Shown: positions 14,904-30,944 of the stretch, in pieces
How the letters are laid out: each line of letters begins with the position of its first letter
Position numbering within the stretch: the first letter of the stretch is position 1
Assembly: GCA_017545535.1 (NCBI GenBank)
Contig: JAFWMS010000016.1
Location: 1-36,110 of the forward strand
DNA from: Clostridia bacterium
Lineage (GTDB): Bacteria; Bacillota; Clostridia; Christensenellales; CAG-138
Length of the DNA: 36,110 nt
Direction of reading: 5' to 3'
Made by a program: the position numbers and the translations under genes
The notes under the pieces: model-generated
What the model saw: the letters and a program-made list of their open reading frames with translations, nothing else
Database searches by the model: none
Told to the model about the DNA's origin: nothing

Positions 14904-16826
14904 TCAATACTTCTTCGCATCCTTCACATGAAGGAGGTGGTCCTCATAGGCGGCTAGGTTCCGAGGGTTCTCGGAGACCTCCGTGTCGCCCACGCGCCAC
15001 CAGGAGCCGTAGCCCTCGGTCATGGATTTGGGCAGGACCCGGATGTCGAACACCACGGGCACGCCCTCTATGGTCTTGGCCTCCTTGAGAGCTGCGTACA
15101 GCTCCTGGAGAGAACGGATGGTATATGCTTTGCAACCGTAGCCCTCGGCGATCTTGGCGAAATTCACTGGCATGAAGGAGCCGGAGTGCTCCCCGTCCTC
15201 GCCCCGGAAACGGAGCTCGGTGCACAAGGTATCGTTGCCATGGCCCACCTGCAGGTTGTTGATGCAGCCGAAGGAGGCGTTGTTGAACACGCAGACGTTG
15301 ATCTTCTTGTGCTCCTGGACCGCGGTCAAGAGCTCGGAGTGGAGCATGATGAAGCTGCCGTCGCCCACCATGGCGTACACGTCCCGATCGCCGATGGCGT
15401 ACTTGACGCCCAAGGCCCCGGAGACCTCGTAGCCCATGCAGGAGTATCCGTATTCCATATTGTATGTATCCACGCCCCGGGCGCACCACATGCGCTGCAT
15501 GTCGCCAGGCAGCGAGCCGGAGGAGCCGATAGCCACGTCCTCGGGGTCGATGGCGAAGTTGATGGCGCCCAGTACAGTGGTCTGAGTGAGGCAGGCGTCC
15601 AGGTCTTTCGCGAACCGGTCCGCGGAGGATGCGTTGGCGTCGTTGACCTCGGGCACGTAGCCCTCTTTGTATTCGATATGCTGGAGCCGGTAGAGCTCCT
15701 TGGCCCAGCGGTCCCGGGCCGTTTCGATCTCGCCCGTATAAGGAGCTTGGTAGCCCCTGAGCTCCTTGAGTAGCGCCGGCAGGGCCCGCTTTGCATCGGC
15801 GATGACGGGCACCGCATCCAGCTTCAAGGCCTGGAACTCGGACACGTTGATGTTGACGAACTTGGCGTCCTCCCGGAACAGCCACTTGGAGGAGGTGGTG
15901 AAGTCGGTATAGCGGGTACCTACGCCAATGATCACGTCCGCTTCCTTGGCGATCTCGTTGGCCGCGGAGCAGCCGGTGACGCCGATGCCGCCCAGGTTCA
16001 GGGGATGATCGTAGACGACGGCGCTCTTGCCCGCCTGGGTCTCCGCGAAGGGGATGCCCGTGGCTTCGGCGAAGGCTTTGAACTCCTCGTGGGCCTCGCT
16101 GTATCTCACGCCGCCGCCGCAGATCAGCAGCGGCTTCTTCGCGGCGCGAATGACCTGGGCTGCTTCAGCCAGGGCCTCCGCTTCCGGCAGCCGCCGGGCC
16201 AGGCGATGGACCCGCTTCTGGAAGAAGGATTCGGGATAGTCGTAAGCTTCGCCCTCCACGTCCTGGGGAATGGCCAGGCACACGGCGCCGGTGTTGGCGG
16301 GGTCCGTCAGCACTCGGAAGGCGGAAAGAAGGGCGCTCATGAGCTGCTCGGGGCGGACGATCCGATCCCAGTACCGGCAGACGGCCCGAAAGGCGTCGTT
16401 GGTGGAGATGGACAGATCGTGGATCTGCTCGATCTGCTGGAGCACCGGGTCCGGCTGGCGGCAGGCGTACACGTCGCCGGGTAGGATCAGCACGGGGATG
16501 TTGTTGGCCGTGGCAGTGGCGGCGGCGGTGACCATGTTGGCCGCGCCGGGGCCCACGGAGGAGGTGACGGCGATGATCTTCTTCCGCTTCATCTGCTTGG
16601 CGAAGGCCACGGCGGTGTGGGCCATGCCCTGCTCATTCTTGCCCTGCCAAACCTTCAGGCGGCAGGTCTCCTGCCGCAGCGCCTGCCCCAGGCCCACCAC
16701 GTTGCCGTGGCCCGGGAGCATGATGACGCCCTCCACGAAGGGATGCTCCACGCCGTCATAGGCGATGTATTGGTTCTCCAGAAAACGCACCAGGGCCTGG
16801 GCCATGGTCAAGCGAACTGTCTTCAT
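14904..16826 (-). CDS. iolD: 3D-trihydroxycyclohexane-1,2-dione acylhydrolase (IolD)
   Basis: A 640-residue ThDP-dependent enzyme that opens the ring of 3D-(3,5/4)-trihydroxycyclohexane-1,2-dione to 5-deoxy-glucuronate. The N-terminal pyrimidine-binding domain has G-H-G-N-V-V-G-L-G-Q-A-L and N-E-Q-G-M. The C-terminal pyrophosphate domain has G-D-G-S-F-I-M and V-F-N-N-A-S-F-G-C-I-N-N for the ThDP/Mg site. Length is normal. The ATG at 16826 is preferred to the GTG at 16832 because AGGAGG ends 5 bases before the ATG and overlaps the GTG. It is the last gene of the operon, 24 bases after iolB. Confidence 0.95.
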   Translation of the reverse strand: MKTVRLTMAQALVRFLENQYIAYDGVEHPFVEGVIMLPGHGNVVGLGQALRQETCRLKVWQGKNEQGMAHTAVAFAKQMKRKKIIAVTSSVGPGAANMVTAAATATANNIPVLILPGDVYACRQPDPVLQQIEQIHDLSISTNDAFRAVCRYWDRIVRPEQLMSALLSAFRVLTDPANTGAVCLAIPQDVEGEAYDYPESFFQKRVHRLARRLPEAEALAEAAQVIRAAKKPLLICGGGVRYSEAHEEFKAFAEATGIPFAETQAGKSAVVYDHPLNLGGIGVTGCSAANEIAKEADVIIGVGTRYTDFTTSSKWLFREDAKFVNINVSEFQALKLDAVPVIADAKRALPALLKELRGYQAPYTGEIETARDRWAKELYRLQHIEYKEGYVPEVNDANASSADRFAKDLDACLTQTTVLGAINFAIDPEDVAIGSSGSLPGDMQRMWCARGVDTYNMEYGYSCMGYEVSGALGVKYAIGDRDVYAMVGDGSFIMLHSELLTAVQEHKKINVCVFNNASFGCINNLQVGHGNDTLCTELRFRGEDGEHSGSFMPVNFAKIAEGYGCKAYTIRSLQELYAALKEAKTIEGVPVVFDIRVLPKSMTEGYGSWWRVGDTEVSENPRNLAAYEDHLLHVKDAKKY

Positions 16827-16850
16827 GCGCACCTCCTGATGAAATATGGT

Positions 16851-17642
16851 TCAGCCTTTGAAAATGTGGTCGTTGGCGTCCGGCTTCCAGAGCCAGGCGT
16901 GCTCGGGATCGTCGATGCGGGTCTTCTCCCAGGGGTTCCCCGGAAGATGGCGGATGCCCCAGGCGTAGCACATGGCGTAGCCCGGCGCGGCGCACTGGGA
17001 ATGGAAGCCGTGGTTGATCACGGCGAGGCCGTTGTGATGAGTCTCATAGATCTCCCCGTTGGCGAAGCCCGCGCCGAAGCCCTGGGGATAGTCGAACCGG
17101 TAGAAATACACCTCCGGCTGGGGATGATGATGGGGCGGATAGGAGGACCACTTGCCGGGGAAGTTCAGCACCTCGCCCAGGACCATGTTGGAGAAGGGCG
17201 CGTTCTCGTAGTCGAAGAAGGTCTTGATCTCCCGGCGCATTGCGCCCATGAGCTCCCCATTGGCCCCGGCGTGCTGGACCTGGACCGTTTCGGGGGTGTA
17301 GAGCACGGGCGCGTAGTCCCGGTCGTTGGGGGTTTGCTGGATGTACAGCTCCACGTGGGATCTGGCGGTCAGGGCGATCTTCGTCCTCCGGGGGGCCAGC
17401 AGGCAGAATGCCTCGTAGTGGAAGCAGTCGGGACGGTCGGCCAGAATGGTCCTGTCCCCGAAGCTCAGCTCCACGGCGCCTTCGAACAGCAGCACGGCGG
17501 TCTCCTTCTCCCCGTCGCAGATGGCGTAGGTGTCGCCCGGTTCCATCACCAGCAGTCCCACGTCCATCATGGTGCCGAGATCGTCCCTGGCAGCGTCGAT
17601 ATACACGTTGTAGCCCCCATGGAGCTCTTTGTCAAAATACAT
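16851..17642 (-). CDS. iolB: 5-deoxy-glucuronate isomerase (IolB)
   Basis: A 263-residue cupin that isomerises 5-deoxy-glucuronate to 2-deoxy-5-keto-D-gluconate. The metal site is visible as H-H-H-P-Q-P-E at 171-177, followed by V-Y-F-Y-R-F, with further histidines at 211 and 214. Bicupin arrangement and length are normal. The ATG at 17642 follows AAAGGAGA; earlier in-frame codons lie inside iolE and have no ribosome site. iolE ends 10 bases upstream. This is the last recognisable classical inositol step; no iolC or iolJ follows. Confidence 0.95.
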   Translation of the reverse strand: MYFDKELHGGYNVYIDAARDDLGTMMDVGLLVMEPGDTYAICDGEKETAVLLFEGAVELSFGDRTILADRPDCFHYEAFCLLAPRRTKIALTARSHVELYIQQTPNDRDYAPVLYTPETVQVQHAGANGELMGAMRREIKTFFDYENAPFSNMVLGEVLNFPGKWSSYPPHHHPQPEVYFYRFDYPQGFGAGFANGEIYETHHNGLAVINHGFHSQCAAPGYAMCYAWGIRHLPGNPWEKTRIDDPEHAWLWKPDANDHIFKG

Positions 17643-30136: not shown

Positions 30137-30176
30137 TTGCTCAGCCTCCTCATGCATGTTATATTGTGCAGGGTCC

Positions 30177-30944
30177 TTACCCGTTTATCTGAGAAAGAAG
30201 GGGGACCAATTCATTCAGCTCCCGGATAACATAGTCTGCCCGAGGCGCATCCAGTCCCTGAAAAGCCGCGTCTCGATGAGCGATGGCGGGGTTGTCGATG
30301 CGCACGCACAGGCCGAGCCCCGCGTTCCGGGAACCCAGCACGTCCCGGGAGATGGTGTCCCCCACGTACCCGGTCTCGGCCGCAGTGACATCCAGTTCCT
30401 TCAAGGCGATCTCGAAAATCCGCGGATCGGGCTTGCGGATGCCCACGCTGCTGGACATGACGATGCATTCCATCAGTTCCAGGATACCATACTGCCGCAG
30501 AACAAAGGGCACCAGCGTCGTGGAAATGATGTTGGATACGATGCCCAAGCGAATGCCCTGAGCGTGAAGCGCCATCATGGTCTCCCTTAGATATGGTCTG
30601 GGGGAATTAATGACCCGTTCGTGATCGTACAGGAAACTCAGCTCTTCCGCGAAGGGAGCGAGACGCTCTTCCGGGATGTGCAATTCTTTCAAATAGTACT
30701 GGCTCCAGATCACGCTTTGGGGCAGTTCGATGAGATTTTTTTCTCCAAAGTGTTTGTATTCTTCGCCGTTTACCGCCAGCATGGCGTCAAGAGCATTCGG
30801 CGTGACATCCAGGGAGACGCCATGCTCCGACAGGACCGAAAGGAGATGCTCACAGAAATGATAGCGAGATGCCTCAGTCCGCTTCACCGTGTGGAGCGTC
30901 CCGCCCAGATCGAACAAAAGTGTTGTGATCCTCCGGTTTTGCAT
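30177..30944 (-). CDS. HAD-superfamily hydrolase paralog 4, first gene of the operon
   Basis: A 255-residue paralog, the most divergent of the four. Motif I is D12-L-G-G-T, motif II I-V-S-N, motif III G-I-R-K-P-D-P-R-I, and motif IV V-G-D-T-I-S-R-D-V-L-G-S. Cap signature V-I-W-S-Q-Y-Y-L. The ATG at 30944 follows GGGAG. It is directly downstream of the LacI-operator promoter, so it should be the first cistron of a 15-gene, 16-kb transcript with gaps mostly below 40 bases. Confidence 0.85.
   Translation of the reverse strand: MQNRRITTLLFDLGGTLHTVKRTEASRYHFCEHLLSVLSEHGVSLDVTPNALDAMLAVNGEEYKHFGEKNLIELPQSVIWSQYYLKELHIPEERLAPFAEELSFLYDHERVINSPRPYLRETMMALHAQGIRLGIVSNIISTTLVPFVLRQYGILELMECIVMSSSVGIRKPDPRIFEIALKELDVTAAETGYVGDTISRDVLGSRNAGLGLCVRIDNPAIAHRDAAFQGLDAPRADYVIRELNELVPLLSQING

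What the first reader, a model, noticed from the sequence alone, without database searches (positions are those of the whole stretch)
14904..30944. Operon that could encode a new inositol route: transketolase cleavage to D-malate semialdehyde, then D-malate, L-malate, pyruvate
Seen: one minus-strand run with iolG, iolE, iolD, iolB, both transketolase halves, a divergent archaeal-type GAPDH-PGK pair, a LarA racemase and malic enzyme. No IolC, IolJ or IolA is recognised. Known: IolB makes 2-deoxy-5-keto-D-gluconate (DKG). Viewed from its ketol end, DKG has the same D-threo configuration next to the carbonyl as fructose 6-phosphate and xylulose 5-phosphate, the form transketolases use. Inference: removing the C2 unit leaves D-malate semialdehyde (OHC-CHOH-CH2-COOH), the carboxymethyl analogue of D-glyceraldehyde 3-phosphate. 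The GAPDH homolog could make its acyl phosphate, the PGK homolog D-malate plus ATP, LarA would invert D- to L-malate, and malic enzyme would give pyruvate and CO2. This uses every central enzyme in the operon and explains why a racemase and malic enzyme sit among iol genes. I know of no described pathway like it. The competing view is ordinary lower glycolysis placed in an inositol operon, with IolC/IolJ functions elsewhere.
Basis: partly seen in the sequence, partly recalled or inferred. Interest (0 to 1): 0.95.

Follow-up and report, generated by a model that had tools for sequence, protein, structure and literature searches.

The report
Transketolase route from inositol to D-malate
A gene cluster in an uncultured Clostridia bacterium joins inositol-opening genes to transketolase, altered glycolysis-type and malate-racemase-family genes, its genome has no recognisable copy of the usual inositol-pathway kinase, and the cluster is predicted to ferment inositol by a new route through D-malate that would earn ATP where the known route spends it.

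Summary
The GAPDH-PGK-TktA/TktB-LarA(-malic enzyme) block recurs with iolG/E/D/B genes in other Clostridia families, Chloroflexi and Spirochaetes. In 291 class genomes, 23 carry iolD: 11 have the DKG kinase IolC and none of these has the block's GAPDH. Of the 12 without IolC, 7 have the block's GAPDH and PGK linked to iol genes, and the other 5 carry a transaldolase-family gene in the iol cluster. LarA passes the curated cut-off for malate racemase, the activity that the stereochemistry of DKG calls for. The block's PGK has lost one of three arginines that hold the substrate's 3-phosphate (30 of 30 sequences), its GAPDH has changed substrate-site residues (33 of 33), and 21 of 21 genomes keep a housekeeping PGK. 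Open: the transketolase acceptor, a circularly permuted phosphoglycerate mutase, four HAD proteins, loci without Tkt or malic enzyme, and no LarC found in this genome. Six literature searches (open-access library, capped lists) showed no such pathway.

The parts
14904..16832 (-). iolD: trihydroxycyclohexane-dione hydrolase (ring opening)
   Evidence: TIGR04377 901 bits, cut-off 715
16851..17642 (-). iolB-type isomerase, predicted to make 2-deoxy-5-keto-D-gluconate (DKG)
   Evidence: KduI/IolB Pfam 160 bits; TIGR04378 only 96 bits, cut-off 205
17653..18561 (-). iolE: inosose dehydratase
   Evidence: TIGR04379 407 bits, cut-off 290
18577..19746 (-). malic enzyme (short form), predicted L-malate to pyruvate + CO2
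   Evidence: Pfam malic and Malic_M; NF009501 366 bits over residues 15-388, cut-off 1178 for the long form
19761..21014 (-). LarA, malate racemase LarAH6 family, predicted D-malate to L-malate
   Evidence: NF052593 561 bits, cut-off 500; 6d6z Mar2 E 1e-118
21011..21985 (-). TktB: C-terminal half of a split transketolase with altered substrate-site residues
   Evidence: Transket_pyr and Transketolase_C; 6yaj split transketolase E 2e-55; motif change
21982..22824 (-). TktA: N-terminal, ThDP-binding half of the split transketolase
   Evidence: Transketolase_N 171 bits
22843..24093 (-). PGK homolog, archaeal-type, predicted D-malyl phosphate kinase (ATP-forming)
   Evidence: PF00162 397 bits; 2cun E 2e-91; position of Arg65 is Ser
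24112..25164 (-). type II (archaeal) GAPDH homolog, predicted D-malate semialdehyde dehydrogenase (phosphorylating)
   Evidence: NF003251 395 bits, cut-off 185; altered substrate site
25198..26214 (-). iolG: inositol 2-dehydrogenase
   Evidence: TIGR04380 449 bits, cut-off 355, from residue 219 of the longer ORF
26247..27812 (-). circularly permuted cofactor-independent phosphoglycerate mutase; role unknown
   Evidence: TIGR01307 470 bits with residues 13-304 matching profile 214-504, iPGM_N at 389-518; motif order
27837..28622 (-). HAD-like protein 1
   Evidence: PF00702; motif DLGGT
28619..29404 (-). HAD-like protein 2
   Evidence: PF00702; motif DLGGT
29405..30157 (-). HAD-like protein 3
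   Evidence: PF00702; motif DVGNT
30177..30944 (-). HAD-like protein 4
   Evidence: PF00702; motif DLGGT
31022..32215 (+). divergent LacI-family regulator, probable regulator of the operon
   Evidence: LacI and Peripla_BP_3 Pfam; kept opposite the operon in close relatives

Best explanation
This operon encodes inositol ring opening plus a transketolase-GAPDH-PGK-malate racemase-malic enzyme block with no recognised DKG kinase, and it likely breaks inositol down by transketolase cleavage of unphosphorylated DKG to D-malate semialdehyde, which would then be oxidised through D-malyl phosphate to D-malate with ATP formation, racemised to L-malate and decarboxylated to pyruvate. Shown by sequence: the genes, their order, their recurrence with iolG/E/D/B, the lack of IolC in the genomes that carry them within the class sample, the malate-racemase family of LarA, and the changed substrate-site residues in PGK, GAPDH and TktB. 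Inferred: IolG, IolE, IolD and IolB make DKG as in known pathways; TktAB moves carbons 5 and 6 of DKG to an aldose acceptor, most likely glyceraldehyde 3-phosphate, giving xylulose 5-phosphate for the pentose phosphate pathway; the GAPDH homolog makes the acyl phosphate and the PGK homolog passes the phosphate to ADP. The D configuration follows from DKG: seen from its ketol end it is D-threo like fructose 6-phosphate, so its carbon 3 becomes the D carbinol of malate, and a racemase is needed before an L-specific malic enzyme.
For: Recurrence: in all 12 class loci around this GAPDH other than the window, PGK is in 11, LarA in 9, TktA and TktB in 7, IolD in 6, IolE in 5, malic enzyme in 5, IolC in 0 (L071 has the GAPDH alone). 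In 80 named loci (44 of them 15 kb or longer), PGK is in 73, LarA in 61, IolE in 43, IolD in 42, TktB in 41, TktA in 39, malic enzyme in 31, IolC in 0. Exclusion: among 23 iolD+ genomes of 291, GAPDH-II is in 0 of 11 with IolC and 8 of 12 without, Fisher p 0.0013 (kinship not corrected). Association over the same 291: LarAH6 above cut-off in 9 of 11 GAPDH-II+ against 22 of 280 others; TktB above 290 bits (threshold chosen after seeing the list) in 9 of 11 against 3 of 280. Not housekeeping: 21 of 21 GAPDH-II genomes searched hold a housekeeping-type PGK, 19 of them beside a second one, and 21 of 21 a GAPDH-I (19 over cut-off); the GAPDH-II is patchy, 29 of 103 family and 11 of 291 class genomes. 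Residues: PGK Arg65, one of three arginines on the 3-phosphate in PMC7729029 (passages), is S, D or G in 30 of 30 block sequences and R or K in 25 of 25 readable housekeeping ones, while Arg122, Arg170, Asp23 and Asn25 stay. GAPDH: the second His of S-H-H to Gln, the Pro of G-P-[IV]-N to Leu, and the His before Q-E-S to Pro in 33 of 33, against four archaeal structures. TktB: T-H-x-G...E-D-G becomes [TS]-D-x-G...N-G in 22 of 22. LarA: malate-racemase family. Precedents: a mutant E. coli transketolase acting on 5-keto-D-gluconate, the 2-hydroxy analogue of DKG (PMC12016104, passages); split sulfo-transketolase SqwGH (PMC11659671, passages).
Against: No biochemistry. Loci lack parts: of 20 family loci Tkt is in 14 and malic enzyme in 11 (some cut by contig ends, but L059, L063 and L064 run unbroken from PGK to LarA without Tkt), and G006 (L058) keeps GAPDH and iolGEBD but lacks PGK, Tkt, LarA and malic enzyme there. 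In G211 the iol-linked cluster has GAPDH, PGK and malic enzyme, while Tkt and LarA sit in another cluster (L073, L082). In Spirochaete loci the LarA matches are only 31-36 % identical and the malic enzyme matches 40-42 %, so they may be other families. A second Tkt pair of the same type lies alone in the own genome (L297, 80 and 79 % identical) and has the same motif, so the motif need not mean DKG specialisation; only these two TktB matches were found there at E 1e-40, so the pair could also serve the pentose phosphate pathway. LarC1, needed for the racemase cofactor, was found in 9 of 21 block genomes and not in the own one. Pyrococcus PGK (2cun) has Lys at position 65, so the ancestral residue may have been Lys. 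The mutase and HADs have no place in the scheme. IolB is below its cut-off. Two IolC loci (genome G353) carry a TktA-like protein. A diverged DKG kinase elsewhere cannot be excluded: the best IolC-model hit in the genome scores 191 bits, cut-off 300. IolJ was not tested.
Confidence: 0.62

Rival explanations
1. Ordinary lower glycolysis: GAPDH, PGK and phosphoglycerate mutase in the operon process triose phosphate made from inositol by a diverged IolC and IolJ located elsewhere; LarA and malic enzyme serve malate uptake.
For: The operon also holds a phosphoglycerate mutase homolog; three PfkB-type hits of 148-191 bits to the IolC model exist elsewhere in the genome; most PGK active-site residues are kept.
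Against: A housekeeping-type PGK (21 of 21) and GAPDH-I (21 of 21, 19 over cut-off) are present elsewhere; GAPDH-II is absent from all 11 IolC+ iolD+ genomes of the class sample; the mutase is absent from all 12 class loci; substrate-site changes are uniform; it does not explain a malate racemase beside iol genes in many genera.
Confidence: 0.13
2. The block is a generic unit for 2-hydroxy-acid semialdehydes that is fed by different transketolase or aldolase donors, and in some loci the product is another acid such as tartrate rather than D-malate.
For: Blocks without iol genes within the fetched stretch: L074 (HpcH/GarL-type aldolase about 6 kb upstream, no Tkt), L081 (TRAP transporter, D-mannonate-oxidoreductase-type SDR, Zn dehydrogenase), L082 (Zn dehydrogenase). 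A malate racemase epimerises tartrate more weakly than malate (PMC11770544, passages).
Against: In iol-linked loci DKG is the only evident donor; LarA is malate-specific by family, and the characterised members prefer malate among the substrates tested.
Confidence: 0.15
3. The Tkt pair supplies pentose phosphates only; DKG is split by an unrecognised aldolase, and GAPDH-PGK act on another aldehyde from the operon.
For: Tkt is missing between PGK and LarA in several family clusters (L059, L063, L064), and a second Tkt pair lies unlinked in the own genome.
Against: Tkt is part of the block in distant families (L072, L075-L078, L081, L082); no aldolase family was seen among the operon's proteins.
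Confidence: 0.08

Closest known systems
Canonical bacterial myo-inositol pathway (iolGEDBCJA; Bacillus, Anaerostipes; PMC8355322, passages)
   Same: IolG, IolE, IolD, IolB steps to DKG
   Different: No recognised IolC; DKG predicted to be cut between carbons 4 and 5 without phosphorylation, giving a C4 acid instead of malonate semialdehyde
Sulfoglycolytic transketolase pathway (sulfo-TK, SqwGH; PMC11659671, passages)
   Same: Transketolase takes a C2 unit from an acidic, unphosphorylated C6 ketose with the end group kept; triose-phosphate acceptor and xylulose 5-phosphate product predicted likewise
   Different: Carboxylate instead of sulfonate; the C4 aldehyde is predicted to be oxidised with ATP gain rather than isomerised and cut again
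Transketolase conversion of 5-keto-D-gluconate to tartaric semialdehyde (PMC12016104, passages)
   Same: Same C4-C5 bond cut in the 2-hydroxy analogue of DKG
   Different: Mutant enzyme in an engineered host; no dedicated operon
Malate racemase Mar2/LarAH6 of Thermoanaerobacterium thermosaccharolyticum (PMC7583248, passages and Discussion section)
   Same: Same LarA family; solved structure 6d6z is the nearest solved relative
   Different: In vivo role was left open there; here it would be a fixed step of inositol breakdown
Carnitine degradation via malate semialdehyde (PMC6562126, passages)
   Same: Malate semialdehyde oxidised to malate
   Different: Other substrate; a potential malate-semialdehyde dehydrogenase is annotated there, and no GAPDH-PGK pair is mentioned in the passages seen

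Membership tests
Canonical iol pathway | IolG, IolE, IolD above curated cut-offs | tested here: met
   449/355, 407/290, 901/715 bits
Canonical iol pathway | IolB | tested here: inconclusive
   Pfam KduI/IolB met; equivalog 96 of 205 bits
Canonical iol pathway | IolC (DKG kinase) in the genome | tested here: not met
   No hit above 300 bits; best 191
Canonical iol pathway | IolJ aldolase | not tested
   No specific model was searched; none recognised among the operon's proteins
Canonical iol pathway | IolA dehydrogenase | tested here: not met
   No hit at E 1e-60 in the own genome; also below cut-off in 8 of 10 IolC+ genomes, so weak
Type II GAPDH | Family model and catalytic SCNTT cysteine | tested here: met
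   395 bits, cut-off 185; SCNTT kept
Type II GAPDH | Residues invariant in four archaeal structures near the substrate site (S-H-H, G-P-[IV]-N, T-T-L-M-H, H-Q-E-S) | tested here: not met
   Changed in 33 of 33 block sequences; that the S-H-H stretch binds the substrate is recalled
Phosphoglycerate kinase | Family model | tested here: met
   397 bits
Phosphoglycerate kinase | Arg65/122/170 triad on the 3-phosphate | tested here: not met
   Position 65 is S/D/G in 30 of 30 block sequences; 122 and 170 kept
Malate racemase LarAH6 | Curated model cut-off | tested here: met
   561 bits, cut-off 500
Malate racemase LarAH6 | Cofactor synthesis (LarC) in the genome | tested here: inconclusive
   LarC1 in 9 of 21 block genomes, not in the own, 97 % complete genome; LarB and LarE not searched
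Transketolase | ThDP, pyrimidine and C-terminal domains | tested here: met
   TktA and TktB Pfam domains
Transketolase | Activity on DKG | not testable with these tools
   Needs an assay

The most novel reading that the evidence does not exclude
Inositol breakdown ends in three parallel ways that mirror sulfoglycolysis: kinase-aldolase (IolC/IolJ), transketolase (this operon: DKG to D-malate semialdehyde, D-malyl phosphate, D-malate, L-malate, pyruvate) and transaldolase (loci L123-L127: DKG to malonate semialdehyde and a C3 unit). The two kinase-free ends save the ATP that IolC spends, and the transketolase end gains one more by a natural malyl-phosphate substrate-level phosphorylation.
Probability: 0.5. 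Interest if true: 0.92.

Novelty: new variant of a known kind. Interest (0 to 1): 0.86.

Why it matters
It would add a transketolase branch to a textbook pathway for a common dietary sugar alcohol, with new activities for two glycolytic enzyme families (malate-semialdehyde dehydrogenase, malyl-phosphate kinase). It would also give malate racemases the in vivo role that their discoverers left open (PMC7583248, Discussion). The predicted route would conserve energy compared with the kinase route, which suits anaerobes, and the whole block can be tested with purified enzymes.

Tried and rejected
IolA absence as a test: dropped, because IolA is also below cut-off in 8 of the 10 IolC+ genomes searched. 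TktB spread as a test at E 1e-40: 224 of 291 genomes match, so only the high-scoring matches are useful, and that threshold was set afterwards. AlphaFold model of the GAPDH: mean pLDDT 75, not used further. Search of viral contigs with the GAPDH: no relative. Tkt in the stretches either side of the G077 cluster, which lacks it: none seen (L298, L299). The idea that the IolC-less genomes without an iol-linked block contradict the model: set aside after their five clusters proved to carry a transaldolase-family gene. The permuted mutase as a second phosphoglycerate step: not supported, since it is absent from the 12 class loci and found in 11 of 80 named loci, but not excluded.

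
Full report
WHAT IS THERE. The window (contig C32 of a 2.50 Mb, 43-contig, 97 % complete genome) carries one minus-strand run from 30944 to 14904: four HAD proteins, a phosphoglycerate mutase homolog, iolG, type II GAPDH, PGK, TktA, TktB, LarA, malic enzyme, iolE, iolB, iolD. 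A LacI regulator faces it at 31022.

STEREOCHEMISTRY (worked by hand, established knowledge). DKG is COOH-CH2-CHOH(3)-CHOH(4)-CO-CH2OH. Read from carbon 6 it is a D-threo ketose, like xylulose 5-phosphate and fructose 6-phosphate. Transketolase would remove carbons 6 and 5 and leave OHC-CHOH-CH2-COOH with the carbinol in the D configuration; its oxidation product is D-(R)-malate. So a transketolase end to the pathway calls for a D-malate-handling step before an L-specific malic enzyme. LarA in the operon is the LarAH6 malate racemase by curated model (561 bits, cut-off 500), with Mar2 as nearest solved relative. Characterised LarAH6 acts on L-malate with KM 0.38 mM (PMC7583248, passages); the authors left its in vivo role open (Discussion).

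RECURRENCE. The GAPDH is accessory: found in 29 of 103 genomes of the family and 11 of 291 of the class, the own genome included. I fetched 20 of the 32 other family matches, chosen for longer contigs, and all 12 other class matches. In the 20 family loci: PGK 18, LarA 18, IolG 18, IolE 17, IolB 17, IolD 15, TktA and TktB 14, malic enzyme 11, IolC 0. In the 12 class loci: PGK 11, LarA 9, Tkt 7, IolD 6, IolE 5, IolB 5, IolG 5, malic enzyme 5, IolC 0. Record titles include Chloroflexi (L246, L249, L250, with iol, Tkt and LarA), Spirochaetes (for example L267 with iol and Tkt; their LarA matches are only 31-36 % and malic enzyme matches 40-42 % identical), a Synergistaceae and a Planctomycetaceae MAG; named strains include Dorea sp. 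D27 (L256: GAPDH, PGK, LarA, malic enzyme, Tkt, no iol genes within 10 kb) and Oscillibacter valericigenes An411 (L222: GAPDH and PGK only). MAG binning errors are possible for single records.

WHO ELSE OPENS INOSITOL. In the same 291 class genomes IolD passes its cut-off in 23, and IolC reaches E 1e-80 in 13, 12 of them over the cut-off; the thirteenth, G159, is a partial match. IolD+IolC+ genomes: 11, none with GAPDH-II. IolD+IolC-: 12, of which 8 have GAPDH-II (G000, G126, G132, G200, G211, G281, G335, G372); Fisher p 0.0013, without correction for kinship. In 7 GAPDH and PGK are linked to iol genes (in G211 Tkt and LarA are in another cluster, L082). In G281 they are not: its iolD cluster (L127) belongs with the clusters of G139, G167, G195 and G184, which carry a 358-363 aa transaldolase-family gene between iol genes. 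The two copies scanned, from L123 and L126, score 117-121 bits to NF002881, below the cut-off of 367; L123 also has an IolA-type (MMSDH over cut-off) and L126 a CoA-acylating aldehyde dehydrogenase. A transaldolase cut of DKG would give malonate semialdehyde and a C3 unit, which suits those dehydrogenases. All 23 genomes are thus accounted for: 11 kinase, 7 transketolase block, 5 transaldolase. The transaldolase-like gene above 500 bits is also in one IolC genome, G257. Fourteen loci fetched from 12 of the 13 IolC genomes hold no GAPDH-II, PGK, TktB, LarA or malic enzyme; two from G353 have a TktA-like protein.

NOT HOUSEKEEPING. Of 21 GAPDH-II genomes searched, 19 have two or more PGKs; G006 and G374 have one, of the housekeeping type. 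The 5 comparison genomes without the block have one each. GAPDH-I is in 21 of 21 (19 over cut-off, two partial matches).

SUBSTRATE SITES. Arg65, Arg122 and Arg170 of PGK bind the 3-phosphate, and Asp23 and Asn25 the 2-oxygen (PMC7729029, passages). In 30 of 30 block PGKs with the region readable, position 65 is Ser (20), Asp (9) or Gly (1), while Arg122, Arg170, Asp23 and Asn25 stay; in 25 of 25 readable housekeeping PGKs the position is Arg (23) or Lys (2). Pyrococcus PGK has Lys. This fits a carboxylate in place of a phosphate with the D-2-hydroxyl kept. In 33 of 33 block GAPDHs (32 loci and the window), residues invariant in four archaeal structures are changed, several of them in conserved stretches that I take to be the substrate site, while the catalytic SCNTT stays; the role of the S-H-H stretch is recalled. 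In 22 of 22 block TktBs, the histidine and the aspartate of the T-H-x-G...E-D-G stretch are Asp and Asn; in the named loci 41 of 44 TktB-matching ORFs show it, one has the usual residues and two are fragments. That these residues contact phosphate and hydroxyl in transketolase is recalled. Because the unlinked second pair of the own genome has the same motif, I do not count it as proof of DKG specificity.

LOOSE ENDS. Tkt is absent between PGK and LarA in some clusters (L059, L063, L064, L200, L201), and a free-standing pair exists elsewhere in the own genome (L297) that could act in trans; that was not checked in those genomes. G006 lacks most of the block (L058). LarC1 was found in 9 of 21 block genomes and not in the own one. 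The phosphoglycerate mutase homolog starts in the middle of the usual protein, runs to the usual C-terminus and goes on with the usual N-terminus. The four HADs share 28-44 % identity; 104 of 104 copies read in the loci (some contigs counted twice) lack the second aspartate of motif I. Mutase and HADs occur only in close relatives and may process an inositol phosphate or regulate; this is a guess.

LITERATURE. Searches for inositol + transketolase + malate semialdehyde (none), malate racemase + inositol (none), three of inositol, transketolase, DKG name and gut (225 papers, 20 listed; Anaerostipes on top, which uses iolBCDEGJ), transaldolase + iolC terms (one unrelated paper), malate semialdehyde (14 papers, 12 listed; mostly synthetic malate-semialdehyde pathways, and carnitine) and the gene set (15 papers, 10 listed) showed no such pathway, judged from listings and the passages cited; subscription papers and preprint servers are not covered. 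The synthetic work states that malate kinase, malyl-4-phosphate and malate-4-semialdehyde had not been reported (PMC5481828, passages); its malyl phosphate is the other regioisomer.

VERDICT. The operon and its recurrence are shown; the chemistry is inferred. I put 0.62 on the transketolase-D-malate route.

Noticed in passing
26247-27812 (-): Circularly permuted cofactor-independent phosphoglycerate mutase: C-terminal half first, then the N-terminal half, 74-95 % identical in relatives that have it.
   Followed up: partly
27837-30944 (-): Four tandem HAD proteins, each lacking the second Asp of motif I (DLGGT/DVGNT) in 104 of 104 copies read (some contigs twice); HAD2 is 93-99 % identical across relatives, more conserved than most pathway enzymes.
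   Followed up: partly
L123, L124, L125, L126, L127 (for example L123:6913-7986): IolC-less inositol clusters with a transaldolase-family gene, and in L123 an IolA-type and in L126 a CoA-acylating aldehyde dehydrogenase: a possible transaldolase end of inositol breakdown.
   Followed up: partly
L297:3562-5407: A second TktA/TktB pair of the operon's type (80 and 79 % identical), standing alone elsewhere in the own genome.
   Followed up: partly
5240-10660 (+): Peptide/nickel-type ABC transporter; its binding protein matches nickel NikA models (120-122 bits, below cut-offs). LarA needs nickel, so a nickel supply is conceivable, but a peptide role is as likely.
   Followed up: no
L074, L081, L082, L256: The GAPDH-PGK-LarA-malic enzyme block (with Tkt in three of the four) without iol genes in the fetched stretch; L081 has a TRAP transporter, a Zn dehydrogenase and a D-mannonate-oxidoreductase-type SDR, L074 an HpcH/GarL-type aldolase: other sugar acids may feed it.
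   Followed up: partly
32199-33807 (+): PHP-domain protein and a weak PfkB-family kinase beside the LacI regulator, kept in close relatives; the kinase is not among the genome's IolC-model hits.
   Followed up: no
13985-14791 (-): ORF matching only a C-terminal part of a GPH sugar symporter, possibly a decayed transporter downstream of iolD.
   Followed up: no
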